Shown here: piece after piece, positions 5,334 to 45,525 of the stretch
Layout of the letters: each line of letters starts with the position of its first letter
Numbering within the stretch: the first letter of the stretch is position 1
DNA from: Frankia nepalensis
GTDB lineage: Bacteria > Actinomycetota > Actinomycetes > Frankiales > Frankiaceae
Direction: 5' to 3'
Length of the DNA stretch: 64,000 nt
Assembly: GCF_016786325.1 (NCBI RefSeq)
Contig: NZ_JADWYU010000093.1
Coordinates: forward strand, 56,896-120,895
Position numbers and translations under genes: made by a program
Notes under the pieces: model-generated
Database searches by the model: none
What the model was told of the DNA's origin: nothing
The model's input: the letters and a program-made list of their open reading frames with translations, nothing else

Positions 5334-5424
5334 CGACCGCGGGCCGCGGACGGCTGGAGGATCTTCACGTTCCGCGGCGCGTCGTCCCCACGAGATCCGC
5401 CGGGCTGCCCGCGTGGGCGCGGCG

Positions 5425-5844: not shown

Positions 5845-5910
5845 GCCTCCAGTGTGTGCCTGGCTGGCTGCCGCCCGGCGCGCGGCGTTGGCGGCGCCTC
5901 GCCGGCCGGG

Positions 5911-30725: not shown

Positions 30726-31727
30726 ATGAGCAGAACCGGGCTGGACACCATGGGGATCAGGGCCGACCCTGATCTCGAATCCGCTGTGCGCGCGGGCCTC
30801 GACGACGTCGAGAAGCTGCTGCGCGACGCGGTCCGCAGCGAGTTCGCGTTCGTGACGGAGGCGTCGCGACATCTCACCGACGCGGGCGGGAAACGCTTCC
30901 GCCCCATGGTGGTGCTGCTCGCGGCGCAGTTCGCCGACCCGGCGGCGCCGGAGGTGATCAAAGCGGCGACCGCCATCGAGCTGACCCACCTGTCGACGCT
31001 GTACCACGACGACGTGATGGACGAGGCCCCGCTGCGACGCGGGGCCGCGTCCGCCAACGCCCGGTGGACGAACACGGTGGCGATCCTCGTCGGCGACTAC
31101 CTGTTCGCGCGGGCCTCGGAGATCACCGCCGACCTCGGCCCCGAGGCGACCAGGATCCTCGCGCAGACGATCGCGACGCTGTGCGAGGGCCAGATCCGCG
31201 AGACCGTGGGCCCGATGCCGGACGACGACCCGATCGAGCACTACCTGCGGGTGATCAGCGGCAAGACCGCGTCACTGATCGCCGCCTCCGGCCGGCTCGG
31301 CGCGATGATGGCCGGCGCGGACCCGGTGACGGCGGACATCCTCGCCACCTTCGGCGAACGTTTCGGGGTCGCCTTCCAGCTTTCGGACGACATCATCGAC
31401 GTCGCCTCGGACAGTGTCGCCTCCGGCAAGACCCCCGGCACCGACCTGCGGGCGGGGGTGAGCACGCTGCCCGTGCTCTACACGTTGCGGGCCCGCGACG
31501 CGGCCGCGGAGCGGCTGCGCGAGCTGATGGCGGCCGGCTTCTCGACGGACGCGGCCGTCGACGAGGCGCTGGAGCTGCTGCGCGGCCATCCGGGAATGGG
31601 TGAGGCCCGCGCCGAGTTGCGCGCCTGGGTGTCCGGCGCCCGCGAGTGCCTCGCCCCGCTCCCGGACGGCCCCGCGAAGACCGCGCTGGAAAGCCTCGCC
31701 GACTTCATCGTCGTCCGCACCGGCTGA
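30726..31727 (+). CDS. trans-polyprenyl diphosphate synthase, probably for the menaquinone side chain
   Basis: Builds all-trans polyprenyl diphosphate from IPP and allylic diphosphate. Both Asp-rich metal sites are present: LYHDDVMDEAPLRRG (DDxxD) and FQLSDDIIDVASD. GGKRFRPM binds the diphosphate. It has 333 residues, normal for long-chain synthases. Next to nuo and the menaquinone genes, the likely product is the menaquinone tail precursor; chain length cannot be read reliably. A second, decayed copy of the last 54 bases is found near 41350. TACGCT at 30711 could be a separate -10. Confidence 0.88.
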   Translation: MSRTGLDTMGIRADPDLESAVRAGLDDVEKLLRDAVRSEFAFVTEASRHLTDAGGKRFRPMVVLLAAQFADPAAPEVIKAATAIELTHLSTLYHDDVMDEAPLRRGAASANARWTNTVAILVGDYLFARASEITADLGPEATRILAQTIATLCEGQIRETVGPMPDDDPIEHYLRVISGKTASLIAASGRLGAMMAGADPVTADILATFGERFGVAFQLSDDIIDVASDSVASGKTPGTDLRAGVSTLPVLYTLRARDAAAERLRELMAAGFSTDAAVDEALELLRGHPGMGEARAELRAWVSGARECLAPLPDGPAKTALESLADFIVVRTG

Positions 31728-31794
31728 CCCGGTTCTGGTGGGCCTGGCCGGGCCAGGAGCGGACCTTACGGAACACCGGCCCGCGCCTCGCCGG

Positions 31795-32781
31795 TCAGGG
31801 TGGTTCGCTGGACGGCTCCCACTGAAGGCCGTAGCTCAGGCCCTGGCGGAGGTTGAAGAACTCCACGCGGACCTCACCGATCGAGTCGATGGCCACCCGC
31901 TCCGGTCCGGGGGTGAACTCGTCGACGACGCGTGGGTGAACGCCGCTGAGCCGCCAGATCTTGGCGGGTAGTCGGTCGGTGCCAAACCTGACGCGGGTCT
32001 GGACGTGGTCGTAGCGGCGCAGCGGCACCACGGCGTAGTACGGCGGCAGCTGCGCGCGGGGGTACGCGACGTACTCGATGCTGAACTCGTGCTGCTCCCC
32101 GAGGTTCAGCGGCCGGGGCAGGCGGACGACGAACCGGGCGTGCCCGCGCGACGGCCGCCGGGTCTCGACGATCTCACCGCCGTAGAGCATGGTCGCCATC
32201 AGGCCGCTCGGCGACGGCGCCGGCGGGCCGGGCCGACGGGGGATGCTCAGCGAGCTGACCACCTCGTCAAGGTCGTCGGCCGTCGCCACCACCAGCCGCT
32301 CCTCGATCAGCCGAGGCGGGTCGACGTCGAACCGCAACGTCGCGCGCATCGACGCGACGAACCACCCGTCCGCGGCGAACGGGGTCGGTGTGGCCGCCGG
32401 GGCGGCGTCCCGCGGGTCGACGACGGACTCGGCGAGGATGCGCAGTCCCTCGTCGATCCGGCGGCGCGCGGTGCGGGGGTCCCGGTCGAACTGGCTGGCC
32501 AGCCACTCCAGCCGCTCGTGCAGAAACTTGTGGTCGGCGGTCTCATGCAAGGCGAGCGCGACCTGCACGGCAAGCCGCAGATCGCTGGGCAGCCGGCGAC
32601 ATTGCTCGGTGAGCGCGAGCACCAGCTTTCGTCGGATCGCGGCGGGGGGATCCGAGGCGTCGATACCGCAGAAAATGCGAAGTCGTGGCCCGACGCGCCG
32701 ATGTACATCGTCGGCCAGCAGCCCGCGCCCCCGCCGCAGTTCCCGTAACTCGGCGACGGCCTCCGACACGTCGCTGTCCAT
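31795..32781 (-). CDS. conserved actinobacterial protein of unknown function, divergent from a kinase gene
   Basis: A 328-residue soluble protein without signal peptide or membrane span. The N-terminal third is charged and helical (ELRRGRGLLADDVHRRVGPR, followed by a Cys and Asp-rich loop). The last two thirds look like mixed beta strands with LRRYDHVQTRVRFGT and PGPERVAIDSIGEVRVEFF. The helical N-terminus has the look of regulators seen next to actinobacterial signalling genes, but I cannot name the family. It is transcribed away from the kinase cassette with a shared 332-bp promoter region, so it may be the cytoplasmic regulator or sensor of that cassette. Confidence 0.7.
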   Translation of the reverse strand: MDSDVSEAVAELRELRRGRGLLADDVHRRVGPRLRIFCGIDASDPPAAIRRKLVLALTEQCRRLPSDLRLAVQVALALHETADHKFLHERLEWLASQFDRDPRTARRRIDEGLRILAESVVDPRDAAPAATPTPFAADGWFVASMRATLRFDVDPPRLIEERLVVATADDLDEVVSSLSIPRRPGPPAPSPSGLMATMLYGGEIVETRRPSRGHARFVVRLPRPLNLGEQHEFSIEYVAYPRAQLPPYYAVVPLRRYDHVQTRVRFGTDRLPAKIWRLSGVHPRVVDEFTPGPERVAIDSIGEVRVEFFNLRQGLSYGLQWEPSSEPP

Positions 32782-33113
32782 CGCGGGCCGCCACCGTCCT
32801 TCGTTCCTGTCTCCCGGCCGGTCTGATCAGGGGGAGATCGTGCCAGAACGAGGGCGCGGGGGCCAGGGACAGCCTGTCCGTCGGGTGACAGAAACGGGAC
32901 AACTCTCCCCAGGGTATTCCGCGTGGTCCGTGCCCAAACCAGGATGGCTGGGACGGACAGGTGGGGGACGGCGGCGGTGGCGGCGAGGAGCACGGGCGAT
33001 GCCCAAGGCCCGGTGGGAATGGGGTTGTCGAACCCGCCCCGCGGTACCACCCGATCCGTCCGATTCGGGCGTAGGATTCGGCGCCAGCGACGGGTTGGCA
33101 CGGGGGAAAGCCG
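32782..33113. promoter_or_regulatory. shared divergent promoter region of the signalling cassette
   Basis: A 332-bp gap between two divergent genes. On the plus strand TAGGAT (33072-33077) is a likely -10, leaving a 30-base leader with a GGGGGA ribosome site before the kinase ATG. A short inverted repeat GGGTT-GTCG-AACCC (33022-33035) lies about 50 bp upstream of the expected start. Nothing definite is visible for the minus-strand gene. Confidence 0.4.
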
Positions 33114-34994
33114 ATGAGCGACGGTCTTTGGGTAGGTCCCGCGAATGAGTCGGACCGCTACCAGCTGGTGGAATCACTGGGCGGCGGCGGAGAAGGCGAA
33201 GTGTGGCGGGCGGTCCGTCCCCTGTCTGAGGCGGGCCGGAGCCGCAGCACGGTGGCGGTCAAGGATTTCGGCCCGGTGCGCGCGTCAGTGGCCCTTTCGG
33301 GCGCGGACGGCCCCGGGACCGCCGACCAGGGTCTCGAGGTTTCCTGGTCGCGGCATGTTTCCTTGTTACAGGCGCTGCAGCATACGCATATCGTCCGGGT
33401 ATTAGATGGTTTTGTCGCCCCGGCGCCCCACTGGTACGGCGAGACGCCCCCGACCGGCACCCCGCGCCGGTACCTGGTCATGAGCCACATCGATGCGCGG
33501 TCGCTGTCGCAGTGGTGCAACGACAACCCGGCAGCGGGCCTCAAGGAGCGGTTCCGGCTTGCCCGGCAGGTCGCCTCAGCCCTCGACTATCTGCACAGCG
33601 GCAGCGACACGAACGGCGTGCCGGTGGCTCACGGGGACATCAAGCCGGCCAACGTCCTGGTCAAGGACGATGGCACCGTCGTGCTCGTCGACTTCGGCCT
33701 CGCCAACCTCGCCGATGGCACCGGCCGACTCGGCATGGGGACCTACGGCTACATGGCCCCTGAACTGCTGGCGGCCGGACCGGACGCCCGGCCGAGTCCC
33801 GACAGCGACAGGTTCGCGTTCGCCGCGATGATCGTCTACCTGCTGACAGGCCAGGCACCGGCGCAGATCGCGGACGGCGCCGGCAGGCCGGTCGACGTAG
33901 ACCGGGAGGCTACCCGTCAGGCGCTCGCCCGCAGCCCGCTGCTGGTGCACCTGCCCTTCCTCGCCGACCTGGTGCTCGCGGGCCTGGCCGCGGACCCCGG
34001 CCAGCGCCCGCGGTCGCTCAGCCGATGGCTTTCCGACGTCGGCTCGACGACGGAGACGTCCGGCACGGTCGGGCCCCCGGGACCGTCCCACATCCCCGCG
34101 CCCGCTCCCGCCGCCCGGCCCACCATGCCAGCCACGGGTCCGATGCCCGATCCCGCGGCGCCGGACGGCCGGCCGGCGCGCCGCGGTCTCGTCGTCGTGG
34201 CCGTTGTCGCCGTGCTCGTGGTCCTCGGCGGGGCCGGCGCCTGGGCACTGTTCGGTCCTGAACCCGGCGGCGGAGGCGACGCCACGCTCAACCCGTCCCT
34301 CCCCACCGCCGGGGTAACCGGTACGGCCGGGTCGCCAGGGCGGACCCCCACCAGCCCCGCGACGCCGAGCCCGACCACGCTGGACCGGATGCCCCAGCTC
34401 ATCGACGTCGATGTGGACGTGGCGCAGCAGAACCTCGTGGCCGCCGGCTTCGAGGTCACCGTCGAGACGGACCTGGTGGTAGACGCCGCGGGCGACAACC
34501 GCGTCGTCGCCCAGGCCCCTCCGGTCGGTGCCCGGCTCACCCCCGGTCAGGAGATCATCCTTACCGTCGAGAGACGGCCCGTCCAGGTCTTCCTCGCCGA
34601 TCTGGATGCGGCTGCCGGGGCGTCCGTGCCACGGCAGGCGGAGCTCAACGGCCAGTCCCACCCGAAGTCGCTGATCTTCGACTACAACTGCAACGACGAC
34701 CCGTGGTTCGTCGAGTTCAACCTGAGCCGCGACTATCAGAGGCTCACCCTGACGGCCGGGATCGACGACAAGAGCGAGACCGCCCAGCTGTACACCGAGT
34801 TCAAGGTGTTCCTGGACGGCCGGCCGCTCGACGTGCGTTCCCTGCGGCTGGGGGAGACCGCGCGCCTGGACCTCGACGTCACCGGCGGGCTGCGCCTTCG
34901 GCTGGAGGTGCTGCGCCAGGCAACCGACGGCTGCGCGCAGAGCAGGGCGGTGTGGGGTGATCCCGTTCTCACCGGCGCCCCAGCCGGGTCGTGA
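33114..34994 (+). CDS. receptor-type serine/threonine kinase with one PASTA repeat and a C-terminal carbohydrate-binding-like domain
   Basis: A 626-residue transmembrane kinase. The inside part has a glycine loop (LGGGGEGEVW, 22-31), Lys50 (VAVKDF), HGDIKPAN with Asp175 and DFG at 193-195. The Arg of HRD is Gly, so activation may not need loop phosphorylation. One span covers about 358-380. Outside, a Pro/Thr-rich stalk leads to a PASTA-like repeat (425-487), then a domain (490-626) with YQRLTLTAGIDDKSETAQ and VFLDGRPLD, resembling the NPCBM-type beta sandwich. PASTA binds peptidoglycan fragments in known kinases; the extra domain suggests sugar recognition. An FHA-like gene follows 1 base after the stop, an expected partner for phosphothreonine. 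Confidence 0.87.
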   Translation: MSDGLWVGPANESDRYQLVESLGGGGEGEVWRAVRPLSEAGRSRSTVAVKDFGPVRASVALSGADGPGTADQGLEVSWSRHVSLLQALQHTHIVRVLDGFVAPAPHWYGETPPTGTPRRYLVMSHIDARSLSQWCNDNPAAGLKERFRLARQVASALDYLHSGSDTNGVPVAHGDIKPANVLVKDDGTVVLVDFGLANLADGTGRLGMGTYGYMAPELLAAGPDARPSPDSDRFAFAAMIVYLLTGQAPAQIADGAGRPVDVDREATRQALARSPLLVHLPFLADLVLAGLAADPGQRPRSLSRWLSDVGSTTETSGTVGPPGPSHIPAPAPAARPTMPATGPMPDPAAPDGRPARRGLVVVAVVAVLVVLGGAGAWALFGPEPGGGGDATLNPSLPTAGVTGTAGSPGRTPTSPATPSPTTLDRMPQLIDVDVDVAQQNLVAAGFEVTVETDLVVDAAGDNRVVAQAPPVGARLTPGQEIILTVERRPVQVFLADLDAAAGASVPRQAELNGQSHPKSLIFDYNCNDDPWFVEFNLSRDYQRLTLTAGIDDKSETAQLYTEFKVFLDGRPLDVRSLRLGETARLDLDVTGGLRLRLEVLRQATDGCAQSRAVWGDPVLTGAPAGS

Positions 34995-34995
34995 G

Positions 34996-35949
34996 ATGTC
35001 CGCGTCGCCGACCGTACTGCCGCTGCTGGTCCTGTACCGGCGCGCCACCGGGCTGGACACGGAGTCCGACCCCCGGGCCAACATCGTCCGGATCGACGAC
35101 CGCTGGCTGGTACCACCGGAGCGGTCCCTCGGCTTCGGGCGCGCCGTGGCCGGCGTCGACATCCCGGTCCGGCTGACGTTTGAGGACGGTGAGTCCGACC
35201 CGTCCCTCCCACGGCTCGCCGGGCGGGTCACCGTTCTGGGCGGCCGGTGGGCACTGACGAACTGCGCCACCAGGAACACGAAGCTTTTCCTGACCGCGCC
35301 GGGGCTGTACCGCGAGATCACCAGGGAGAGTCCGCCCGAGGTACTCGTCCGGGACTGGCAGCTGGTGACGCTGCGCTCCCGCGGCGGGAACGTCGAGCAC
35401 CGCTTCCACCTGGTCATCCGGTGGCGCCGACCCGCGGCTGGCGGCGATGGAGCGCCCTCGGTGCACTGGGGCACGGGCGACTGGGAGGCCGGCGCGCCGT
35501 CGACCAGCACGGCCGACCCGCCGGCCTGGACCGACGGGGACCGGCGGACGCTGGCCGCCTACTGCTACCCCGAGCTGAACGGGCTCCTGCCCCGGCCGCG
35601 CGAGCGGCGGGCCCAGACCCTGCTGATCCTGGGGCGGCCGGCGAACCAGCCCAACCTGAAGTGGCTGGACAAGCAGCTCAAACGGCTGAAGAAGGACGCG
35701 GGCGAGCGGCTGGGCGCTGACCTCGCGGGCGAGGCGGGAACTCCACCGTTCATCGAGTACGTGGTCGCCCACCACCCGCTCCTCGCCGACTCCCTACGGG
35801 AATTGGACGCGCCAGTCACCGCCCGGCTGCCGCCGCCAGCGCGCGGCGCCGCACCGAGGCGCGCCGGGGACAGCGGTGAGACTCAGGAAACGGTGAAATT
35901 ACCCCGGCCCGGCCCGCTGCTCCAGCCTCGGCTGAAACCGGGGGGCTGA
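34996..35949 (+). CDS. FHA-like protein, probable phosphothreonine-binding partner of the upstream kinase
   Basis: A 317-residue soluble protein. Residues about 35-105 read like a divergent forkhead-associated domain: SLGFGRAVAGVDIP, then LPRLAGRVTVLGGRWALTNC and RNTKLFL in place of the usual G-R, S-R-x-H and N-G motifs. The His is absent, so phosphopeptide binding is not assured. The C-terminal part (about 190-280) is charged and helical (KWLDKQLKRLKKDAGERLG), perhaps a winged helix. The start is ATG 34996, just after the kinase stop; an ATG at 34957 inside the kinase gene is also in frame. The close spacing points to co-translation and joint function with the kinase. Confidence 0.68.
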   Translation: MSASPTVLPLLVLYRRATGLDTESDPRANIVRIDDRWLVPPERSLGFGRAVAGVDIPVRLTFEDGESDPSLPRLAGRVTVLGGRWALTNCATRNTKLFLTAPGLYREITRESPPEVLVRDWQLVTLRSRGGNVEHRFHLVIRWRRPAAGGDGAPSVHWGTGDWEAGAPSTSTADPPAWTDGDRRTLAAYCYPELNGLLPRPRERRAQTLLILGRPANQPNLKWLDKQLKRLKKDAGERLGADLAGEAGTPPFIEYVVAHHPLLADSLRELDAPVTARLPPPARGAAPRRAGDSGETQETVKLPRPGPLLQPRLKPGG

Positions 35950-36122
35950 CCCCCCAGCGTGCCCCGTGCGCTTCCCCGACCCGCTGGGACGGTGCTTTCG
36001 TGAAATGCATGGAAACCGAGTAGACGTGTACGGGAGGAAAGTCCCGGATTCCGGAGCAGGCGCCCCGGCTCCGCGCCACCGCGCCGAAAACTGTCGCCCG
36101 TACCGAAAGCCGAGGACCAGGT

Positions 36123-36159
36123 CGGAATGGCTGCCGTACAGGGGGCGGCAGCCATTCCG
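36123..36159 (+). terminator. strong hairpin after the FHA-like gene
   Basis: Perfect 14-bp arms CGGAATGGCTGCCG (36123-36136) and CGGCAGCCATTCCG (36146-36159) with a 9-base loop. It lies in a 284-bp gap and would separate the kinase/FHA pair from the lipoprotein gene. There is no U tract. The bordering DNA shows no other structure. Confidence 0.55.
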
Positions 36160-36233
36160 GCCGCCGACGAACCGAACAGACGTGACTAGCGCGCAATCAT
36201 TGACCTCACCGTCATCGGAAACCGGAGCTGGAA

Positions 36234-36689
36234 ATGAGGGTTGCAGTGAGATACCTGCGAATTTCGCGGGCAGTCGCCGTCGCCGGCCTGGCGGGGATGT
36301 TGGCGACGACCGCTGCGGGCTGCGGTGGCTCCGACGAGTCGTTGGTGTTCCAGCCGCCGGTGGGAGTGTCGTCGCCCCAGGCATCGAGCGCGCCGGCCGG
36401 CCGAGACGCGTCGGCCAGCGACTTCGCCGGGAGCTGGGCCGGCAGGGGGTGCGCCGAGGACGTTTCAATAACCTTCGAGGAGGGCGGACTTCTCCCCGGC
36501 GAGGAGGAGTGGGACGGGACTATCTACTGGGACGGCAGCCCTGGGTTCTATGCCGTCCTCGACGGGCGGCGGATCAGGTTCCAGGTGATCCGGAACGAGC
36601 GGGTCTTCGGCTACCGGTTCGTGGCGAGTGACGCATTCACGCTCGACCCCCTGGACGGCGACGTGCCCTGTGAGTTCGTCCGCCGCTGA
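36234..36689 (+). CDS. secreted lipoprotein of unknown function
   Basis: A 151-residue protein that begins with Arg residues, a hydrophobic stretch (AVAVAGLAGMLATTAAGC) and a lipobox ending AAGC, so it should be a lipid-anchored surface protein. The mature part has a Ser/Ala-rich linker followed by a compact domain with GSWAGRGCAED and a Cys near the end (VPCEFVRR); the two Cys may pair. A ribosome site (GGAG) is about 8 bases before the ATG. It lies in the middle of the signalling cassette and could be its ligand-binding or substrate component. No family is recognised. Confidence 0.75.
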   Translation: MRVAVRYLRISRAVAVAGLAGMLATTAAGCGGSDESLVFQPPVGVSSPQASSAPAGRDASASDFAGSWAGRGCAEDVSITFEEGGLLPGEEEWDGTIYWDGSPGFYAVLDGRRIRFQVIRNERVFGYRFVASDAFTLDPLDGDVPCEFVRR

Positions 36690-36859
36690 GGCGTGGACCC
36701 GGAGCGGTTCGCCGTCGTGGCCGTGGACGTATCGCATCCTTGCTGGTCGCGCCGCGTCGGCGGATGTGTTGACGATGGAATTCTCCCGACGGGGAAGGTC
36801 CTGTACCCCGGCGCTGTGAGTTGATTACTTGAATCCGAATGGTCGGCACGGGGGAGCTC

Positions 36860-38281
36860 ATGGCGCGTTTCTGTACGTCCTGCGGCGCACCGGCAGCGGA
36901 GCGGCACCGTTTCTGCGGCGAATGCGGCGCCGCCCTGGCGCCGGCCAACACGAGTCCGGTCAGCGCCGGCGGCACAGCAACGGTCGCCGTTCCGGCCGGG
37001 CTGGGTATCGCCGGGCCGACCGACCAGCCACCAATGCCCGGCACCCCGGCGCCTCCGGCCGCCGGCGATGCCGTGGCACTGCCGGCAGGGCCGCGGATAC
37101 AGGGCGATGCCCCTGCTGGGGCTCCCCTGCCGGGAGCAGCCGTCACGCGGGTGTCGTCGGTCGCCGCGGCGAGTCCACTGACGGAGGCCACGCCAGCCGG
37201 CGCCGCTGTGTCGGCGGTGGCGGGCCGCTCGCCGGCGGCCCGCGTGCTCGCCGACAGGCGCCGTGCCAGGCGCCGGCTGGCCTGGCTGCTCCCGGCCGCG
37301 GTCGTCATCGTCGCGTTGGCAGTGACGATTCCTCTCCTCCTCGTCAACCGGGTTCTCGTTGGGAACCGGGGCGCGGCCGACATGCGCTATGTGGTCCTCA
37401 CACCTCAGCGAGAGCTGACGGCTCAGGGGCTCGGGGGGACGATCGATCTGCTCGAGGACCGGGCTGCTGGGCTGGGCATCGACGATGTCGAGGTCCGGGC
37501 CGCGGCGGACGGTAAGAGCCTTCTGCTCGGCCTGCCTGCCGCCGACGTCGGACTCATCGCCACGCTGACAGCGCCCGGTCGGCTTGAGTTCCGGGAGGTG
37601 TACACATCGGGCCTGGCGGAGCCGGGGCCGCAGCCGACAGCGGCGCCCGCGGTGCCATCGCCGGCAGCGGTGCCGATACCGACGCCCATCGCCACCCTGG
37701 CGCCGACCGCCACACCTACGCGGGCCGCGATGGCTTGGCCGACGCCCACGCCGACTGCCAGCACCAGCCTGTCGGCCGACGCGACGCCGCCCGCCGACGT
37801 GATGTACGCGTTCGGCGCCCTGAGCTGCGACGCCGCGCCGAACGTCGGCCCGGCCGAGGCCCAGGACTGGACGGTCGCCTGCGACAAGGACGGCGCGGTC
37901 ACGTATCTGCTCAAGCCGGCGGCGGTGGTCGGGGCCGACGTGAAGTCCGCGTCGGCCGGCCAGCCGCAGACCAGCGCGGGTGGCGCCAACATCAACACCG
38001 GTCAGTGGGTTGTCAACGTCGAGTTCACCGGGTCCGGCCAGAAGAAGTTCACCCAGCTGACCGAGGACACCATCGGTAAGCAGACGGCGATCGTCTTGGA
38101 CGGCGTCGTCCAGTCGGCGCCGACGACGAACGACCGCATCCCCGGCAGTGCCCAGATCAGCGGGAGCTTCACCGAGTCCGAGGCCCGCGATCTGGCCGCT
38201 GTCCTGAACGCGGGAGCCCTGGCCGTCGACCTGGTGGCCGGCCCGCCGGCCACCACCGCGCCCTCCGGGTTCGGAACCTGA
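36860..38281 (+). CDS. zinc-ribbon membrane protein with an external SecD-head-like domain
   Basis: A 473-residue protein with an unusual layout. Residues 1-25 form a zinc ribbon (FCTSCG and FCGECG). A long Ala/Pro/Gly linker leads to one span (about 140-163) after an Arg cluster. The outside part begins MRYVVLTPQ and contains GTIDLLEDRAAGLGIDDVEV and, after a Pro/Thr-rich insert, the stretch VEFTGSGQKKFTQLTEDTIG, AIVLDGVVQSAPT and SFTESEARDLAAVLNAGAL. These match the first periplasmic domain of SecD, without the SecD membrane channel. The start at ATG 36860 gives a standard zinc-ribbon N-terminus; ATG 36839 is possible. A chaperone-like or envelope-sensing role is an inference from the SecD similarity. 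Confidence 0.8.
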   Translation: MARFCTSCGAPAAERHRFCGECGAALAPANTSPVSAGGTATVAVPAGLGIAGPTDQPPMPGTPAPPAAGDAVALPAGPRIQGDAPAGAPLPGAAVTRVSSVAAASPLTEATPAGAAVSAVAGRSPAARVLADRRRARRRLAWLLPAAVVIVALAVTIPLLLVNRVLVGNRGAADMRYVVLTPQRELTAQGLGGTIDLLEDRAAGLGIDDVEVRAAADGKSLLLGLPAADVGLIATLTAPGRLEFREVYTSGLAEPGPQPTAAPAVPSPAAVPIPTPIATLAPTATPTRAAMAWPTPTPTASTSLSADATPPADVMYAFGALSCDAAPNVGPAEAQDWTVACDKDGAVTYLLKPAAVVGADVKSASAGQPQTSAGGANINTGQWVVNVEFTGSGQKKFTQLTEDTIGKQTAIVLDGVVQSAPTTNDRIPGSAQISGSFTESEARDLAAVLNAGALAVDLVAGPPATTAPSGFGT

Positions 38282-38346
38282 AGACAGAAATTACCAGGAA
38301 TCGGAGGGCGCGGTGACAGTCGTTGTTACTCAGGTCTGGATCCTTG

Positions 38347-39399
38347 ATGATTGTTAACGAAGAAGAGGTGCTTCCTCGTCGGCGCCTGCCGCGTGCCGTC
38401 CTGCAACTTCTGGCGACGATCGTCGCCATAGTCGTTCTGCTCGTCGTCCTGGTCGTGCGCCTTCGAGGAGGGGGCTCCACGGTCGGCCCGGTGTGGTCGG
38501 TGGCGGTCTCGTCCGACGGTGGTCTCGTCGCGAGCACCAGCTACTACGAGAATGCGGTGCGGCTTTGGGCCGCCAGCGACCCACGAGACATCCGTCAACT
38601 CGGCTCGCCTCTGGAGATCCCTGATGTGTCGTCGGTTGCGTTCGCGCCGGGCCGCCAGGTTCTCGCCGCAGGCGGCTCTGACGGCGCGACGGGAACGGGT
38701 GCGGTGACGCTATGGGATGTCACGGCCCCGGCGGCTCCGCGGTTGCTCGGCTCCGCTCTCACCGGTAGCTCGGGTGGCATCGAGTGGGTTGCGTTTGCGC
38801 CAGATGGCCGCATGCTTGCCAGCGGCGACAGGGCCGGGGGCGCGAGACTGTGGGACCTGGCGGACCCAGCCGCCCCTCGGCAGCTCGGCTCTCCCCTGGC
38901 GAGCGATGCCAACGGAACCGCGATGGTGGCGTTTGCGCCAGATGGGCGCCTTCTCGCGGTTCGGGACCGCGACGGGGTGCGGCTGTGGGATGTCACAGAC
39001 CCGGCCGACGCCCGGCCGTTGGGCTCCTCCGTGCCCGGTGGCGTGATGGCATTCGCGCCCGTGGGTCATGTTCTGGCCACGGTTGGCGGCGAGAACGTCG
39101 TGCAGCTCTGGGATGTCGCGGCTCCGGAAGCTCCTCGCCTGCTTGGCTCACTCCCCGCCGGCCAGCACGGCGTGATCTACTCCCTTGCCTTCACCCACAA
39201 TGGTCATACTCTCGCGGGTGCGAGCCAAGACGGGATGGTGGAGCTGTGGAATGTCACCGACCCGGTGTTCGGCCGGCGGCTCGGCGACACGGCCCCCGGT
39301 CACAAGGGATTCGTGGCCTCGGTGGCGTACACACCAGACGGCCGCACCCTCGTCAGTGGTGGCGAAGACGGCAAGGTGCGTCTCACGACCGTCGGCTGA
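38347..39399 (+). CDS. membrane-anchored WD40 beta-propeller protein
   Basis: A 350-residue protein with a basic N-terminus, one span (about 17-39, AVLQLLATIVAIVVLLVVLV) and then six or seven WD40-like blades. Each blade has the rhythm VAFAPDGR-x-LA-x-G...LWDVTDPA-x-PR-x-LGS typical of bacterial WD40 repeats next to actinobacterial kinases. By the positive-inside rule the propeller is outside the cell. It would act as a protein or sugar docking platform. TTG 38323 is an alternative start. It follows the SecD-head gene by 65 bp in the same direction. Confidence 0.8.
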   Translation: MIVNEEEVLPRRRLPRAVLQLLATIVAIVVLLVVLVVRLRGGGSTVGPVWSVAVSSDGGLVASTSYYENAVRLWAASDPRDIRQLGSPLEIPDVSSVAFAPGRQVLAAGGSDGATGTGAVTLWDVTAPAAPRLLGSALTGSSGGIEWVAFAPDGRMLASGDRAGGARLWDLADPAAPRQLGSPLASDANGTAMVAFAPDGRLLAVRDRDGVRLWDVTDPADARPLGSSVPGGVMAFAPVGHVLATVGGENVVQLWDVAAPEAPRLLGSLPAGQHGVIYSLAFTHNGHTLAGASQDGMVELWNVTDPVFGRRLGDTAPGHKGFVASVAYTPDGRTLVSGGEDGKVRLTTVG

Positions 39400-39660
39400 C
39401 CGGGCTCGGGCCGAGGAATCGCAAGACGAACGCCCTTGGGGTACCTGGGGCTAGCTCCGTGCGCTTTTGATTCGCCCACCAGGCAGCTATCCGGCCGCCC
39501 GCGGCAGAAGCCCAGGGAATATCCCCCGGGGCTTGACAACCGGAATACCTGGCCGGGCACTGGCCCCGACCCGCCCGTGATCATAAAGAGCGAAATTACT
39601 GGCCGGGGTCGCGCCGATCGCGGTCGGGTGACATTCCAGAGAAAGTAAGGGGGGTCTAGA

Positions 39661-39774
39661 ATGTCGATGACGCATACCCGGAATCGGGCTCTCAGGGTGC
39701 TCCTGGTCGCCGTCGGGCTGGTCTGGGTCGGCCTCGCAGCCGGTTGCGGTGGCGGGGCTGCGACTGAGCGCTGA
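39661..39774 (+). CDS. very small lipoprotein (37 aa)
   Basis: MSMTHTRNRALR, then a hydrophobic run and a lipobox LAAGC, with only twelve residues left after the Cys (CGGGAATER at the end). A good ribosome site (AAGGGGGG) lies about 10 bases upstream. The mature product would be a lipidated peptide of about ten residues. It may be a functional microprotein, for example a membrane-bound signal, or the leftover of a longer lipoprotein. It sits 9 bases before the glycosyltransferase gene. Confidence 0.5.
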   Translation: MSMTHTRNRALRVLLVAVGLVWVGLAAGCGGGAATER

Positions 39775-39783
39775 CCCACGACA

Positions 39784-41235
39784 GTGATATCGGTAGGACC
39801 ATTCCTGGCGTTGATGGGGTGGGCGCGTCGCCTGGGCCGGCTGGTGCCGGCCGGGTGGCCCGTCCACGGTGTGCCGGTGGTCGGTGCGCTGCTTGTGGCG
39901 AACTGGCTCGTGTACGTGGACCCGCAGGCCCACTACGACGTCAACGTCTTCCTCCGGGCGGGTGACGCGGTCCTGGGCGGCCGCGACCCGTACCCAACGC
40001 CGGGCACGGAGGAGGTCTACTCGGGCTCCGCGTTCGTCTACCCGTATCTGATGGCCGTGCTGTTCGTTCCGCTGGCCCTGCTCCCGAGCGGCGGGCCGGA
40101 GCTGTTCGTCGGCTTGTCGACGCTGGCCGTTCTCGCGGGCTGCGGGTTGGCCGGCGCGCGCTCATGGCGCGTCTACGCCCTCGTGCCGGTGGCCTCATGC
40201 GCGATCACCGGCCTGCAGCACGGGACGCTCAGCCCGCTGCTGTTCGCCGGGTCGGCCATGCTGTGGCGGCTACGGGACCAGCCCGTGCCCGCGGGCCTGG
40301 TCGCGGCGCTGCTCGCCTACAGCAAGCTGTTCCTCCTCCCGGTGGCCCTGTGGCTGCTGGTCACGGGCCGATACCGGGCGACGGCGACCTGCGGGGCGGC
40401 GCTCGTCGTCCTGTTCGCGGTGACCGAGCTGGTCAGCCCGGTCGGTCTCGGCACCTATGTAGGCATGCTCGACGCGCTGGCCCGAGAGGAGGCGCCCGAT
40501 GGCCTGGCCCTCACCGGGCTTCTCCTGAACGCGGGCCTCGGCCCGGCGGCCTCCTGGGCCGCTCGCGCGGTCGCGGGCGGCCTGCTGGTCGCCTGCCTTC
40601 TCCGGTCGGCGCGGCCGACCGCGGCTCCGGGCGGTGACGACGACGGCCGGGACGGGCCGGGAGGTGCGGCGGCCTCGTGGCCCGGGGACGAGCGGCTGAT
40701 GTTCGCAGCGACGGTGGCGGCGGCGCTGCTGGCCTCGCCGATCGTATGGAGCCACTACCTGCTCCTGCTCGCGGCCCCGCTGCTGGTGCTCAACCCCGGC
40801 GGTGACGCCGCCGCCGCGGTCGCCACCATCGCGAGCTGGCTCCTGGTGACACCGCACCTGACCACCGCGGCCCGCCTGGCCGTCACAGTCGCGGTCCTCG
40901 CCGCACTCACCGCCGAACCGCTGGCGGCAACGACGCGAGGGGTGGCCTCCAGCCGGCCGTCGTGGCGCGCCCTGGCCGTGGGCGCGGGGGCGGTCCTGGC
41001 CACGGCCGCCGGCTGGGCAGCGTTCTGGGCGGCGTCGCGGGCCCGCGACGCCGAAGGCCGGGTGACCGGCGCCCACCTTACGCTGCTCGCCGCCCTCGCC
41101 CTGCTTGGGTGGGCCGCGCACCGAGCCTCCGGCGAGACATACCGATCAGGAACGGAGAAGCACGGACGCCCGCGCCGCGGCCCAGTCGGCGACCCGGACC
41201 ATCGCGGTCGGGCAGGTCAGCCGGTTGGCGATTAG
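39784..41235 (+). CDS. polytopic membrane glycosyltransferase, GT87-like
   Basis: A multi-span protein with about ten hydrophobic segments. The first outside loop holds HYDVNVFLRAGDAVLGGRDPY, which fits the Asp-containing loop of the GT-C type GT87 family (polyprenol-phosphate-mannose-dependent mannosyltransferases). It would add a sugar to an envelope glycan or protein on the outer face of the membrane. The GTG at 39784 lacks a ribosome site; ATG 39811 is another option. The last 30 residues, after the final span, run into DNA that is antisense to a transposase remnant, so the original C-terminus has probably been replaced. Confidence 0.75.
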   Translation: MISVGPFLALMGWARRLGRLVPAGWPVHGVPVVGALLVANWLVYVDPQAHYDVNVFLRAGDAVLGGRDPYPTPGTEEVYSGSAFVYPYLMAVLFVPLALLPSGGPELFVGLSTLAVLAGCGLAGARSWRVYALVPVASCAITGLQHGTLSPLLFAGSAMLWRLRDQPVPAGLVAALLAYSKLFLLPVALWLLVTGRYRATATCGAALVVLFAVTELVSPVGLGTYVGMLDALAREEAPDGLALTGLLLNAGLGPAASWAARAVAGGLLVACLLRSARPTAAPGGDDDGRDGPGGAAASWPGDERLMFAATVAAALLASPIVWSHYLLLLAAPLLVLNPGGDAAAAVATIASWLLVTPHLTTAARLAVTVAVLAALTAEPLAATTRGVASSRPSWRALAVGAGAVLATAAGWAAFWAASRARDAEGRVTGAHLTLLAALALLGWAAHRASGETYRSGTEKHGRPRRGPVGDPDHRGRAGQPVGD

Positions 41236-41320
41236 GACCTCGGCCACGGACGGGCGGCCCGTTGCCTTGGCGGCGCAGCCGTGACGCACTGACCGGCCGC
41301 GCGAGTCGATGGCCGGCGAC
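41150..41320 (-). pseudogene. transposase remnant, probable IS1634-type (DUF4277 N-terminal region)
   Basis: Reading the minus strand gives EVLIANRLTCPTAMVRVADW, close to the Val-Leu-x-Ala-Asn-Arg-Leu-Thr signature in the N-terminal part of IS1634-family transposases. The flanking sequence (DSRGRSVRHG) is also consistent. There is no start, catalytic DDE part or inverted repeats. It overlaps the end of the glycosyltransferase gene on the other strand. Confidence 0.55.
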
Positions 41321-41323
41321 TTG

Positions 41324-41376
41324 GCCCAGACCGCGCTGGAAGCCTCGCCGACATCGTCATCGCCCGCACCGGCTGA
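41324..41376 (+). pseudogene. decayed fragment of the polyprenyl synthase 3' end
   Basis: Aligned by eye to the last 54 bases of the polyprenyl synthase gene at 30726-31727, 47 positions are identical, with one base missing. With the frame restored it reads AQTALESLADIVIARTG against AKTALESLADFIVVRTG. No further homology is visible upstream. It is therefore a fragment of a paralogue or a copied scrap beside the transposase remnant. Confidence 0.65.
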
Positions 41377-41551
41377 CCAGGGCCCGGCCGCCCGGGCCGC
41401 GCGCAGACGCCCACGGGCGCGCGTCATCACCGGCGCGGCCCGCGTGGCGTGACCGGCGAGGAACCCCCGGACAGTCCGGCCAGTAAGAACGGCCCGAAAA
41501 GGCGTAAGGCCCGGCCCCGCGAGCGGGACCGGGCCTTCGCCTGTCTGGGAG

Positions 41552-43225
41552 CTAGTAGATCCAGTCGAGCACCGCGGCGTCGGGGGACGTGTCCTCCGAC
41601 GCCGGGTCCGGGCTGGTCACGACGAACGGGTCCGCGGGCGGCGGCGGCGAGCCGGCCGCGGTCGGTTCCGTGGTCGCCGGCTCGGTCGTGGCCGGCTCGG
41701 TCGTGGCCGCCGTCGAGCCCTGCGGCTGTCCCTGGACCTCGTCCTGCTCCGCGGCCGGCTGGCTCGCCACCGAGCCGTTCCCGGCCGCCTGGGCGCCCGT
41801 GTCGGCCTGCGCCCCCGCGGGGGCCTGAGCGGTGGGGGTCGCCTGCGCGCCAGGGGTGGTCTGCGTGCCGGGATCGGCGGGCGGCGCGGTCGTCGGCGTG
41901 CTCGTCGGGGCGCTCGGCTGCCCCTGCCCGGTCGTCGGCGGCTGGGACGGAGCCGTCGTGGCGGGCTCCTCCTCGGCCTCGTCGACCAGGCTCCCAAGCC
42001 CGAACCAGTCGAAGCTGGTGTAGGCCTGGTCGTCGCTCGGCGTGCTCGACGGGGCCGCCTGCGGCGCCGTGGGCGAGGCCGTGAGGTCCACGGGCACCTC
42101 GGCGGCCGCGGAGTCCCGGGGGAGGAGCGGCACGATCGGGATCGGGGTGCCGTCGGGCAGGTAGGTCCGCTCGGCGGTCGACCCGGAACCGGTCGAATCG
42201 AAGTCGTCGTCAGCGAAGGACGAGCGGTCGCCGGCCGTGGTGGACGGCTGGTCCCGGTCACCGGCCGGGGACTGGTCGGGCGCGGCCGGGGCGAGCGCCG
42301 GCTTGACCGGCGTCGGACTTGTGGCCGACGAGTCCAGGCTGCCGGTCGCCCGCGCGGACGGCCACTGGTCGGTCGTCGTGCCGCCGGGATCGGTCGGGAT
42401 GGTGAGCGGCCCGGTGTCGGTCGACAGCACCGCGGTGCCGACGAGCGCGGACAGCCCCGCGAGCGACGCCGTGCTCATGATCGCGAGCCGGTTGCGGGCG
42501 GTCCCTGGGCGGCCCGCCGGGGCCCGGTGCGCGCCGGGCGGGCGCTGCCCCCCGTTCGCCCGGCGGGCGTCGTCGCCCTTGGCGTGCGGTTCGCGGCTCC
42601 GGTCGCCGGGCAGCCGCGCGTCCCGGATCGCCTGGTTGCCGACGGCCGCGCTGAGCGAGGCGCGCGCGGCCGGCGTCGCGGCGATGAACTGGCCGCCGGC
42701 CGGGGCGGAGGGGGTCCCACCATCCGGCTCGTCGTCGTAGGGCGCGTCGTCCAGGCCCGTGAAGTCGTAGTCGTAGTCCGGGTAGCCGCCGTCCGCCGGG
42801 TGCTGGTCGACGGCCGGGTCCTGGTAGCCGTGGGCGGCGGGGCCGGCGTAGCCGAGGTAGTCCTCGTAGCTGTAGCCGTAGTGGCCGCCGTGGCCATGAT
42901 GATCGCCGTAACCATGGTGGTCGCCGGCCGGGGCGGGAGGCCCGTCGAGGCGGTACGCCGAGCCGCTCATCGAGATCGGGCCGGTCACCGTGTCCAGCTC
43001 GCCAGGCGGGAGCACCGGTGGTGGCGGCGGGATCCGCATGCCCGGAGGGGTCAGCACCCCGGTCACGGTGCTCTCCTGAAGGGCGGCGGAGGACCAGCCT
43101 TCATGGCTGGCCGAGTAGGCATCGCGGGCCTCGGGCCACGGCTGCCAGCCGCGGTTAGCCACGGCGGATCCCGGCGGACGCGGTGCCACGGTCGGACGCC
43201 ATACGACGCCCATCCGAGGACCCAT
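41552..43225 (-). CDS. proline-rich single-span membrane protein, function unknown
   Basis: About 557 residues, mostly low complexity. The N-terminal part is rich in Tyr, Gly, His and Asp (HHGYGDHHGHGGHYGYSYED), then basic sequence and one span (LAIMSTASLAGLSALVGTAV). The outside tail is Pro/Thr/Ala-rich with TTEPATTEPATTEP repeats and ends in LDWIY. The start is uncertain; ATG 43225 and 43213 are both plausible, and a longer frame runs to 43375. The strong frame and clear span support a real gene. It has the same layout as the gene that follows on the same strand (cytoplasmic disordered part, one span, Pro-rich tail), so the two are probably related in role. Confidence 0.6.
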   Translation of the reverse strand: MGPRMGVVWRPTVAPRPPGSAVANRGWQPWPEARDAYSASHEGWSSAALQESTVTGVLTPPGMRIPPPPPVLPPGELDTVTGPISMSGSAYRLDGPPAPAGDHHGYGDHHGHGGHYGYSYEDYLGYAGPAAHGYQDPAVDQHPADGGYPDYDYDFTGLDDAPYDDEPDGGTPSAPAGGQFIAATPAARASLSAAVGNQAIRDARLPGDRSREPHAKGDDARRANGGQRPPGAHRAPAGRPGTARNRLAIMSTASLAGLSALVGTAVLSTDTGPLTIPTDPGGTTTDQWPSARATGSLDSSATSPTPVKPALAPAAPDQSPAGDRDQPSTTAGDRSSFADDDFDSTGSGSTAERTYLPDGTPIPIVPLLPRDSAAAEVPVDLTASPTAPQAAPSSTPSDDQAYTSFDWFGLGSLVDEAEEEPATTAPSQPPTTGQGQPSAPTSTPTTAPPADPGTQTTPGAQATPTAQAPAGAQADTGAQAAGNGSVASQPAAEQDEVQGQPQGSTAATTEPATTEPATTEPTAAGSPPPPADPFVVTSPDPASEDTSPDAAVLDWIY

Positions 43226-43420
43226 GGTGTCGGACGTTCTGACTGTGCCAGCTGCGACTAAGCACGGAGCCTCCGGCCTATGGTGTGTACCCCCCCGGGC
43301 GACACCGCGCGTACCCCCACGCGCACCATGACCATACCGGATCCGGATCAACCGGACGTACCCCCCTTCGGTCATTGGATGCCGCCAGCCGAATAACCGC
43401 CGCGCGACGCGCGAGGGGGG

Positions 43421-45061
43421 TCATCCTCCCTGCGCGGGCGGGGCTCCCGGAGCGCCCGGCACTGGCGCGGCCGTGGAGGCGCCGCCGCCCGCCCGGGGCG
43501 CGGGGGCGTCGCGGCGGGTCAGATCGAAGACCGGGAAGGGATAGCTCTTCGTCGCGCTCGGCTGCCCGGGGGGCGGCGTCCGTGGATCCACATCGTCCCC
43601 GCCCATGAGCAGGGTCAGCACGAGGGTCGCGACGATCACGGCGGCGGCGACAAGGCCCGCCGCGAGCAGCGCGACGCGCTGCCGGCGCCACTGCCGCTCG
43701 TCCTCGCCGTTGTCCTGGGCTGTGGCCGCCCCGCCGCCCGGCGAGGCAGTGCCGCCCGCCGCGTCACCCGCCGCGTCGCCCGGCGCGCTGTTGGCGGGCG
43801 CCGTCGAGCCCGCCGCCAGGGCCGGCGCCGGGGCTGGGCCGATGGACGGCGAGCCGTCGGCGCCGTCCGCCGGCGCGCCCGGCGACCCCGCTACCGCCGG
43901 CGGCTGACCGGAAGCCGACGGTTGGCCTGGAACCGACGGTTGGCTGGGAGTCGGCGGTTGGCTGGGAGTCGGTGCCTGCCCCGAGGCTGGCGGCGCCGGT
44001 ACGGCCGGCGCGCCTGGGTGGCCACCCGGGCTGGCGGGCCAGGACCCGTGACCGCCAGGGCCGGGGGACGGCGGCGGGAGGGGGATCGGCAGACCGCCGG
44101 TCGGCGCGGTGGGCTCATCCGGAAACGCCATGTCACCCCCTCGCGGCGGTTGGTGCGCCGCCGACTGGTAGGCCCCGAAGGGCGGCTGATGACCCGGGGC
44201 CGGGTAGTGCGGGCCGCCGGTCGACTGGCCGGAATAGAACGGGCCTGACCCGTCGGGAAGGCTCGGTGGCGGCTGCTGATACGGCGTGCCTGGTGCTTGG
44301 CCCGGATAGGGCGTCACTGCCTGCGGGGTCTCCGGAAACGGTGGGATCGGGATAGACCCAGTATCGGTCGGCACGAAACCGACAGTCGGCGGCGGCGGGA
44401 GGTACACCGGCTGGAAGTAGACCGGCTGGTAGACCGGCGCCGGGTAATAGCCCGGCTGACCGGCCGGGAAGGGACTGGCCGGGGCGGGTGCCTGGGCACC
44501 CGGGTACGGCGCGCCAGGAGGACTCATCGGCTCCGGGCGGGACGGGTGCGGGGGTGGCGCGCTCTCCGGCGGCGCGTGCGCGGTCTCGGCGGGTCGGAAC
44601 CACGACCAGGGCCTGGGCTGTGGCTGAGGCGGGCCCGGGTGCTCGGGCGCCGCGCGCCCGGGTGGGACCTCGGCGTCGGCCCTCGGCCTGGGGGCCCGGT
44701 CGACCGGGGCCGGCGACTCGTCCGCCCGTTCCCGGTAGGGGGTGTGCAGGTACAGCGGGCCGATCGGGATAGGGCTGGTGTCGCTCGGGGTGAACCCGTC
44801 CGGGCCTGCCGGACCGCCCACCGTCGGGATCGGGTTCCAGCCCTGCTCGGCCGGCGAGGCCGGTTGGGCGGGAACCCCGGATCCGCCGGGAGCCCGGTCG
44901 CCGATCCGGGAGGGATCCCGGGGCAGGGCGGCGCCCGGCGGATAACGAGGCGGAACGGGCCAGCCGCCGGCCAACGGGGGCCGGGCCGAGGCGTTCCAGA
45001 TCGTGTCGTTCTCGGGATCGGCGTCGTCCGGGCCGATGGGGTCGGCCGGGTTGGCGTTCAT
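43421..45061 (-). CDS. proline-rich protein with C-terminal membrane span, function unknown
   Basis: About 546 residues. The first 430 are Pro/Gly/Tyr-rich with recurring short units such as DTSPIPIGP, DTGSIPIPP and GGLPIPLPP, followed by SQPPTPSQPS repeats. A basic stretch (RQWRRQRVALLAAGLV) begins a single span near residue 455-480, leaving a tail of about 65 residues outside. A ribosome site GGAGG is 10 bases before ATG 45061, and GTG 45064 is an alternative. Such proteins can act as scaffolds for kinases or cell-wall growth, but nothing here proves it. Confidence 0.6.
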   Translation of the reverse strand: MNANPADPIGPDDADPENDTIWNASARPPLAGGWPVPPRYPPGAALPRDPSRIGDRAPGGSGVPAQPASPAEQGWNPIPTVGGPAGPDGFTPSDTSPIPIGPLYLHTPYRERADESPAPVDRAPRPRADAEVPPGRAAPEHPGPPQPQPRPWSWFRPAETAHAPPESAPPPHPSRPEPMSPPGAPYPGAQAPAPASPFPAGQPGYYPAPVYQPVYFQPVYLPPPPTVGFVPTDTGSIPIPPFPETPQAVTPYPGQAPGTPYQQPPPSLPDGSGPFYSGQSTGGPHYPAPGHQPPFGAYQSAAHQPPRGGDMAFPDEPTAPTGGLPIPLPPPSPGPGGHGSWPASPGGHPGAPAVPAPPASGQAPTPSQPPTPSQPSVPGQPSASGQPPAVAGSPGAPADGADGSPSIGPAPAPALAAGSTAPANSAPGDAAGDAAGGTASPGGGAATAQDNGEDERQWRRQRVALLAAGLVAAAVIVATLVLTLLMGGDDVDPRTPPPGQPSATKSYPFPVFDLTRRDAPAPRAGGGASTAAPVPGAPGAPPAQGG

Positions 45062-45525
45062 CACCGGCAAGCCTCCGCGTCCCCGCGCCGAAGAAGACCG
45101 GACCAGGACAGGCCGCGAGACCCTTCGGAAGAAGGGCCGGTTCCCGCCGTCGCGGCGATTCCCGGCGCTGCGCCGTGGACCGGGACACCGTCGCCTCGTG
45201 ACGGGTCCACTACGACCTTAGTTCGTCCGGAGCGACGCGACCTTGACACTACGGGCGAGTTGTGCGTGATGTCCGTGGCCTCCCCGTAGTCGGCGTGCCG
45301 CCGCGCCATGAATCGGGTGGCCGGTGGGATCGCGTGGTTCGCGAGTCGCGTTTCGCGGACCGCGCCGGCCCGGCGCGGCCGGGACGGTGGCGACCCAGCG
45401 GGCGACGGCGGAGACGGCGACGGCCGGGCCGGCCACGGCCGAGACGAGGACGGCTGAGACGGCGACGGCCGGGGCCGGCGGGTGCGCCGACCCCGGCCGT
45501 CGCCGGAGGTTCTCTCAGTTCACGG
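45062..45525. other. intergenic region with simple repeats between two minus-strand genes
   Basis: About 460 bp. The right part (roughly 45390-45480) is a run of degenerate GACGGCGACGGCCGG-type units. The left part has a direct repeat of CGACCTT. A plus-strand TTGACA (45243-45248) has no gene to serve. On the minus strand TAAGGT at 45220 to 45215 is a weak -10 for the proline-rich gene. No gene is supported. Confidence 0.4.

What the first reader, a model, noticed from the sequence alone, without database searches (positions are those of the whole stretch)
31795..41235. Candidate envelope-sensing cassette: PASTA kinase, FHA-like protein, lipoproteins, SecD-head and WD40 membrane proteins, glycosyltransferase
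Seven genes in one direction plus a divergent one form a block whose products span cytoplasm (FHA-like), membrane (kinase, SecD-head, WD40, glycosyltransferase) and surface (two lipoproteins). The kinase outside parts look able to bind wall fragments or sugars. I know of no named system with this set. It is bordered by an insertion scar, so it may be mobile or recently rearranged.
Basis: inference. Interest (0 to 1): 0.75.

Follow-up and report, generated by a model that had tools for sequence, protein, structure and literature searches.

The report
Inserted cell-wall signalling gene island
In this Frankia-family bacterium a 9.6-kilobase block of genes has been inserted at the tail of a housekeeping gene; its recurring core, a membrane kinase with two unfamiliar neighbouring proteins, is predicted to relay cell-wall signals into the cell, while the other genes in the block are likely just passengers.

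Summary
The genes are real, but the seven-gene 'cassette' is not one conserved unit. The block (31,728 to about 41,370) is an insertion of about 9.65 kb at the 3' end of a polyprenyl diphosphate synthase gene. Five of five relatives whose site was examined lack it. A decayed second copy of the synthase 3' end lies at its far edge. Inside, only the divergent gene (p1), the kinase (p2) and the FHA-fold protein (p3) recur together: all three in 2 Frankiaceae genomes, and p1 with p3 in 4 of 4 strong p3 loci (in one, p1 is a stub). The lipoprotein was found in none of 34 other family genomes; the relatives of the SecD-like and glycosyltransferase genes that were read lie at other loci. p3 has an FHA fold with the usual phospho-threonine residues replaced, so a plain kinase-to-FHA relay is doubtful. 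p1 relatives in other Actinobacteria sit beside a Crp/Fnr-type gene in 21 of 26 loci. Best reading: a wall-sensing kinase module carried on a small, integrase-less genomic island. The island is well shown; the signalling role is inferred. Novelty: new variant of a known kind.

The parts
30726..31727 (+). Polyprenyl diphosphate synthase gene: integration target, intact
   Evidence: PF00348 3.1e-63; 85-88% identical to its counterpart in 5 relatives, each next to nuoN
31678..31753 (+). Left repeat: 3' end of the synthase gene (att-like); holds the 15-bp core 31715-31729
   Evidence: 82% identical over 76 bp to 41328-41402, E about 1e-16 in the local comparison; exact core shared with 41364-41378 and found at no other place in the window on either strand
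31795..32781 (-). p1: 328 aa, helical N-domain plus C-terminal beta-sandwich; no Pfam or NCBIfam family
33114..34994 (+). p2: Ser/Thr kinase, TM ~353-383, one PASTA (425-486), one NPCBM (533-620)
   Evidence: PF00069 1.4e-25, PF03793 3.6e-9, PF08305 1.4e-8; GxGxxG, VAVK, HGDxKxxN, DFG, APE present
34996..35949 (+). p3: divergent FHA-fold domain plus C-terminal helical domain; a GTG start at 34957 is also possible
36123..36159 (.). Perfect 14-bp inverted repeat with 9-nt loop between p3 and p4
   Evidence: in the 195 loci held then, hits only in 5 loci that cover this same place
36234..36689 (+). p4: lipoprotein (lipobox ...TAAGC, read from the sequence), found only in this genome among 35 of the family
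36839..38281 (+). p5: Zn-ribbon-like N-terminus, TM ~146-176, then a copy of the SecD P1 region without the SecD channel helices
   Evidence: PF22599 4e-27, PF13240 just below cut-off; 66% identical over residues 271-464 to own SecD; TM
38323..39399 (+). p6: TM ~21-55 plus WD40 propeller
   Evidence: PF00400 9.9e-34; TM
39661..39774 (+).
   Evidence: read from sequence
39784..41235 (+). p7: GT87 glycosyltransferase whose last ~20 codons read into a transposase scrap
   Evidence: PF09594 7.9e-10
41167..41250 (-). Scrap of a transposase-like gene (DUF4277 N-terminus; 'transposase' is recalled, not from a call)
   Evidence: 93% DNA identity to G005; 24 of 26 residues identical; the intact relative carries PF14104 DUF4277
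41328..41402 (+). Right repeat: displaced, decayed 3' end of the synthase gene (...SLADIVIARTG*)

Best explanation
The block is a genomic island of about 9.65 kb inserted at the 3' end of a polyprenyl diphosphate synthase gene, and its core is a kinase module (p1-p2-p3) that is predicted to sense the cell wall from outside and likely passes the signal to p3 and p1 inside. Shown: the insertion (empty sites and flanking repeats), the domain make-up of the kinase, the FHA fold of p3 (on a model), and the recurrence of p1, p2 and p3 together. Inferred: (1) the outer PASTA and NPCBM domains bind peptidoglycan or glycan fragments; (2) binding switches on the cytoplasmic kinase; (3) p3 docks on the kinase or on p1, probably not through the usual phospho-threonine pocket, whose Ser, His and Asn are replaced while the Gly-Arg is kept; (4) p1, or the helical tail of p3, is the output, probably gene regulation, since p1 relatives elsewhere sit directly behind Crp/Fnr-type genes. 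The lipoprotein, SecD-P1, WD40 and GT87 genes are most likely cargo of the same island; no result here ties them to the kinase. The island carries no recognisable integrase, so it is likely an immobile remnant or was moved in trans.
For: Island: 5 of 5 genus relatives whose site was fetched have nuoN-synthase followed by genes of the window's right flank, with no match to p1-p7. A second, decayed synthase 3' end lies at the right edge (82% over 76 bp), sharing a 15-bp core found only at these two places in the window, 9,649 bp apart. The right copy reads ...VIARTG*, like the relatives (V[I/V]ARTG, read), while the intact left copy reads ...IVVRTG*, as expected if the island brought a new 3' end and pushed out the old one. 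Core: the triad is in the window and in Frankia sp. CiP1_Cm_nod1; EUN1f has p1 and p3 adjacent without the kinase; G026 has p3 next to a p1 stub: 4 of 4 strong p3 loci found in 393 class genomes. All 3 kinases of this type (3 of 35 family genomes at E 1e-60) keep PASTA + NPCBM. p2 and p3 overlap or nearly touch.
Against: The full triad was seen in only 2 genomes. In G013 the kinase stands without p1 or p3 on its 18-kb stretch; G028 (EUN1f) and G026 have no kinase match at E 1e-60. In 21 of 26 loci from named genomes p1 pairs with a Crp/Fnr-type gene, and only 1 of 26 has the kinase. p3 lacks the FHA phospho-threonine residues. No integrase family was matched among p1-p7. GC3 of block genes (0.75-0.90) is below that of the synthase (0.94) and nuoN (0.96), but p8 outside the block is 0.91, so composition is weak support. 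Two other genus members (G003, G005) were not examined at the site.
Confidence: 0.62

Rival explanations
1. All genes of the block form one envelope-sensing system, with lipoprotein, SecD-P1, WD40 and GT87 as its surface arm.
For: Same direction for all but p1; several are predicted membrane or surface proteins; they lie within one insertion.
Against: No other genome searched has the set: p4 in 1 of 35; p5 matches elsewhere are mostly long SecD-like frames; GT87 relatives lie at a different locus in the three genus members fetched. A 284-bp gap with a palindrome separates p3 from p4. The other three p3 loci show no match to p4, p5 or p7 on the stretches read (14.7, 3.3 and 19.5 kb).
Confidence: 0.15
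2. p1-p3 is the real functional pair and the kinase is an optional neighbour; p3 acts as a phospho-independent adaptor for p1.
For: p1-p3 in 4 of 4 strong p3 loci (one p1 a stub), kinase in 2 of 4; p3 lacks the phospho-threonine residues.
Against: p2 and p3 overlap or nearly touch in the window and the kinase is adjacent in both triads.
Confidence: 0.25
3. The relatives each lost an ancestral block (deletion), and the block is no insertion.
For: None beyond the presence/absence pattern.
Against: The decayed duplicate of the synthase 3' end at the right edge is not expected from a deletion in relatives; 5 of 5 relatives would need the same loss.
Confidence: 0.04
4. The kinase and WD40 genes are part of an anti-phage or conflict system.
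For: Kinase hits PADLOC PD-T4-6 and mad6 models; in CiP1 an nSTAND1-WD40 gene lies upstream of the triad.
Against: Those PADLOC hits look like generic kinase similarity, and apart from a weak WD40 hit no second component was matched; an outward PASTA-NPCBM sensor fits wall sensing better.
Confidence: 0.08

Closest known systems
PknH-EmbR of mycobacteria (PMC4601284, passages read)
   Same: Membrane Ser/Thr kinase with an FHA-bearing partner in an actinobacterium
   Different: EmbR has an N-terminal DNA-binding domain, a BTA domain and a C-terminal phospho-binding FHA; p3 has an N-terminal divergent FHA fold and a helical tail; nothing like p1 was mentioned in the passages read
PknB/Stk1-type PASTA kinases (NF033483)
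   Same: Kinase, TM, PASTA outside
   Different: One PASTA only, plus NPCBM; 94.4 bits against a cut-off of 450
GarA/OdhI with PknG and other kinases (PDB titles; papers seen only as search listing)
   Same: FHA fold near kinases in Actinobacteria; OdhI and GarA are among Foldseek's best hits for p3
   Different: p3 is larger, has a C-terminal helical domain and lacks SxxH/NGT
SecD (own copy at G000 C84)
   Same: P1 region 66% identical over residues 271-464 of p5
   Different: p5 has one TM stretch and a Zn-ribbon-like N-terminus and lacks the SecD channel helices
Genomic islands and integrative elements that enter the 3' end of a gene (general knowledge; PMC3218068 and PMC5704250 seen only as search listings)
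   Same: Target gene kept intact, displaced 3' end at the far side, empty sites in relatives
   Different: No integrase or transfer gene matched among p1-p7

Membership tests
Genomic island at a gene 3' end | Empty site in relatives | tested here: met
   5 of 5 sites fetched; G003 and G005 not fetched at the site
Genomic island at a gene 3' end | Flanking repeats of the target gene end | tested here: met
   31678-31753 and 41328-41402, 82% identical
Genomic island at a gene 3' end | Integrase or other mobility gene of its own | tested here: not met
   No such family among p1-p7; only a transposase-like scrap
PknB/Stk1 PASTA kinase | Catalytic kinase motifs | tested here: met
PknB/Stk1 PASTA kinase | Curated family score (several PASTA repeats) | tested here: not met
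   94.4 of 450 bits; one PASTA
FHA domain | FHA fold | tested here: met
   p3 model pLDDT 72.7, from 6 sequences
FHA domain | Sequence match to the family profile (PF00498) | tested here: not met
   0 families for p3; p3 not among the 22 FHA matches of its own genome
FHA domain | Phospho-threonine contact residues (SxxH, NGT; their role is recalled) | tested here: not met
   Of the genome's 22 canonical FHA domains 18 were aligned: S-x-x-H in 18 of 18, the NG asparagine in 17 of 18; 7 of 7 p3-family proteins have PRLA instead and no asparagine in the aligned place; the Gly-Arg is kept
EmbR-type regulator | OmpR-like DNA-binding domain + BTAD + C-terminal FHA | tested here: not met
   No such Pfam domains in p3 and the FHA fold is N-terminal
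SecD | P1 head | tested here: met
   PF22599 4e-27
SecD | Channel membrane helices | tested here: not met
   One TM stretch in p5
Wall-sensing function | Binding of wall fragments by PASTA/NPCBM | not testable with these tools
   Needs a binding assay
Anti-phage kinase system (PD-T4-6 / MAD6) | Curated family score and partner genes | tested here: inconclusive
   Kinase-level hits; NCBIfam MAD6 68.3 of 460 bits

The most novel reading that the evidence does not exclude
p1-p2-p3 is a new kind of bacterial signal relay: an outward wall-glycan kinase speaks to a 'dead-pocket' FHA adaptor, which hands the signal to p1, a modular receiver (helical domain plus an aminopeptidase/ribophorin-like beta-sandwich) that Actinobacteria plug into different inputs: kinases in Frankiaceae, Crp/Fnr regulators in Amycolatopsis, Actinokineospora and Lentzea, a histidine kinase-like gene in one Frankia-family genome, and a ubiquitin-like conjugation operon in another.
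Probability: 0.27. Interest if true: 0.72.

Novelty: new variant of a known kind. Interest (0 to 1): 0.45.

Why it matters
It turns a vague 'possible cassette' into two testable statements: an insertion with defined ends, and a small signalling module with two protein families (p1, p3) that match no Pfam or NCBIfam entry. If p3 really works without the phospho-threonine pocket, it would show how an FHA fold next to a kinase can be rewired. p1 could give a handle on a receiver protein found beside several different signalling genes in Actinobacteria.

Tried and rejected
One eight-gene cassette: rejected as a conserved unit. p3 as an ordinary FHA reader of phospho-threonine: weakened. A first attempt at that comparison read minus-strand loci in the wrong direction and was discarded, 4 of the 22 FHA loci were left out because their stretch did not have the full flanks. 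Profile-profile support for p3 against the genome's own FHA domains is modest (36% probability), so the residue comparison leans on the fold match. p3 tail as a helix-turn-helix: not shown; Pfam at E up to 10 gave nothing useful (best 0.018, one member) and the fold hits cover only residues ~3-147. The N-terminal domain of p1 got no fold match in a list dominated by its C-terminal domain; this says nothing either way. Pfam on 35 p1-family members gave only scattered weak matches (best E 0.011, none in more than 2 members). PDB sequence searches with p1 and p3 profiles gave no convincing relative (best E 0.0095 and 0.19); the outer part of p2 matched one PASTA structure weakly (E 0.0014). Shared operator sequences: no 10-mer common to three of seven upstream stretches from five genomes. 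Sigma-70 and terminator scan: nothing above shuffles. Plasmid records: no p3 match. Limits: one search scored 5 candidates per genome and one search scored 36 at most, so weak relatives may be missed; one search used a single peptide pattern, so its 26 loci are not a full survey; gene calls in fetched loci come from a home-made codon-usage finder. Literature: PASTA with NPCBM and kinase, 0 papers; NPCBM with serine, threonine, kinase and extracellular domain, 0; Parafrankia with genomic island, 0; SecD with P1 head and zinc ribbon, 0; the listings were scanned by title and abstract start without finding this gene set; the library holds only open-licence papers. PMC7159879 and PMC2877116 were seen as passages only.
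Full report
WHERE IT IS. The window lies in a 10.7-Mb draft genome (G000, contig C343). p3 and p1 relatives named in the databases include Frankia and Parafrankia, and its family-mates include Frankia sp. CiP1_Cm_nod1 and Parafrankia sp. EUN1f (same contigs as G034 and G028), so this is a Frankiaceae genome; the genus is not named by the tools.

THE BLOCK IS AN INSERTION. The window has nuoN (name recalled), then a polyprenyl diphosphate synthase gene (30726-31727), then the reported block, then p8. In five genus relatives (G001, G002, G004, G006, G007) nuoN and the synthase (85-88% identical) are followed within about 4 kb by genes that lie right of the block in the window: p8 in four of them, two TPP/POR oxidoreductase genes in three, and in G007 also two genes from further right. 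None of p1-p7 matches there. G003 and G005 were not examined at this site: the G003 stretch fetched for it was not the synthase locus, and the G005 stretch was the transposase locus.

A second copy of the synthase's 3' end lies at 41328-41402, 82% identical to 31678-31753 over 76 bp. Both share CCGCACCGGCTGACC, which spans the stop codon and occurs nowhere else in the window on either strand, at 31715 and 41364, 9,649 bp apart. The right copy reads SLADIVIARTG*; the relatives read SL[AT]D[FY]V[IV]ARTG* (read from the sequences); the intact left copy reads SLADFIVVRTG*. The simplest account is that an element entered the synthase 3' end, supplied a new end, and pushed the old end to its far side, where it decayed. 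Its neighbours on that side (p8 and onward) are the original ones. No integrase family was matched among p1-p7. Next to the right repeat lies a scrap of a transposase-like gene, 24 of 26 residues identical to an intact gene in G005 that carries the DUF4277 domain. That scrap also supplies the last codons of the GT87 frame.

WHAT STAYS TOGETHER. p3: a search of 35 family genomes gave 5 matches (own included), one of them weak; a profile search of 393 class genomes, with 5 candidates scored in each genome listed, gave 10, of which only 4 are strong (E below 1e-138; G000, G028, G034, G026), all in this family; the other 6 are partial at E 5e-5 to 7e-4. Kinase p2: 3 of 35 family genomes at E 1e-60 or better (G000, G034, G013), all with one PASTA and one NPCBM. 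p1: 14 of 35 family genomes, several of the matches weak or partial; the window's genome has three.

In G034 (Frankia sp. CiP1_Cm_nod1) p1, kinase and p3 lie in one direction behind an nSTAND1-WD40 gene and before an RDD gene. In G028 (Parafrankia sp. EUN1f) p1 and p3 are adjacent and divergent on a 3.3-kb contig, without the kinase. In G026 the p3 region is 94% identical to EUN1f until about 30 codons into p1, where the match ends, so p1 is a stub there. Thus p1 accompanies p3 in 4 of 4 strong loci and the full triad is in 2; G028 and G026 have no kinase match at E 1e-60. In G013 the kinase has neither p1 nor p3 on the 18-kb stretch read.

WHAT DOES NOT. p4 was found only in this genome (1 of 35). 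p5 is a copy of the SecD P1 region: residues 271-464 are 66% identical to the genome's own SecD, which lies beside SecF-like and ruvB-like genes (names recalled). Matches in 30 of 35 genomes are mostly in long open frames like that of SecD, but only the own copy was read as SecD; shorter relatives beside a glutamine synthetase gene occur in G006 (families) and, by sequence, in G002. p7 has relatives in 26 of 35 genomes, six of them genus members 71-94% identical to one another but only 59-61% to the window copy. In the three genus loci read the gene lies between a DUF445 and a DEAD helicase gene (families tested in one of the three); in G000 that interval is about 800 bp with no GT87 trace. 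So the window copy looks like an incoming distant relative, or a moved and diverged one, now the only close copy found. The second lipoprotein is a 37-residue stub. p6 matches many WD40 genes and was not surveyed.

p1 ELSEWHERE. Of 26 loci from named genomes, 21 have a gene of one family directly upstream; 5 members tested are Crp/Fnr-type. Only 2 of 26 have p3 and only 1 of 26 the kinase within the roughly 5-7 kb printed on each side (less on short contigs). In Frankiaceae, more distant p1 relatives lie beside a histidine kinase-like ATPase gene (L134) and beside YukD/ubiquitin-like, ThiF and ubiquitin-conjugating-type genes (L143).

READING. The insertion is well supported. That p1, p2 and p3 work together rests on recurrence in few loci and on p2 and p3 overlapping or nearly touching; that they sense the wall rests on domain types; the order kinase, then p3, then p1 is a guess. 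The replaced FHA residues argue against the textbook form of that relay. The remaining genes of the block are best treated as cargo until shown otherwise.

Noticed in passing
L143 (G008) 4606-8493: A p1 relative sits directly beside a YukD/ubiquitin-like protein, a ThiF (E1-like) and a ubiquitin-conjugating-type protein, all on one strand.
   Followed up: partly
L045-L061, L064-L067: p1 relatives in Amycolatopsis, Actinokineospora and Lentzea follow a gene of one family, Crp/Fnr-type in 5 of 5 members tested, in 21 of 26 loci; in 6 Amycolatopsis loci a ~200-aa protein follows, and the one member tested has no Pfam family.
   Followed up: partly
L193 5960-6764 (G000 C110): The native GT87 position between a DUF445 and a DEAD helicase gene is empty in this genome, while GT87 is present there in three genus members read.
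   Followed up: partly
window 36123-36159: Perfect 14-bp inverted repeat between p3 and p4 with no T-run; not seen at any other place in the loci held.
   Followed up: no
L041 3319-4167 and L040 8848-9517: Short SecD-P1-head proteins (lipoprotein-like in L041) beside a glutamine synthetase gene in G006 and, by sequence, in G002; the L040 match is split over two segments.
   Followed up: partly
L168 7003-8898 (G013): A kinase-PASTA-NPCBM relative, 52% identical, with neither p1 nor p3 nearby.
   Followed up: partly
window 41552-45070: p8 and p9 match no Pfam family; p8 is only 38-40% identical to its counterparts in relatives, while several genes around it are 77-92% identical.
   Followed up: no
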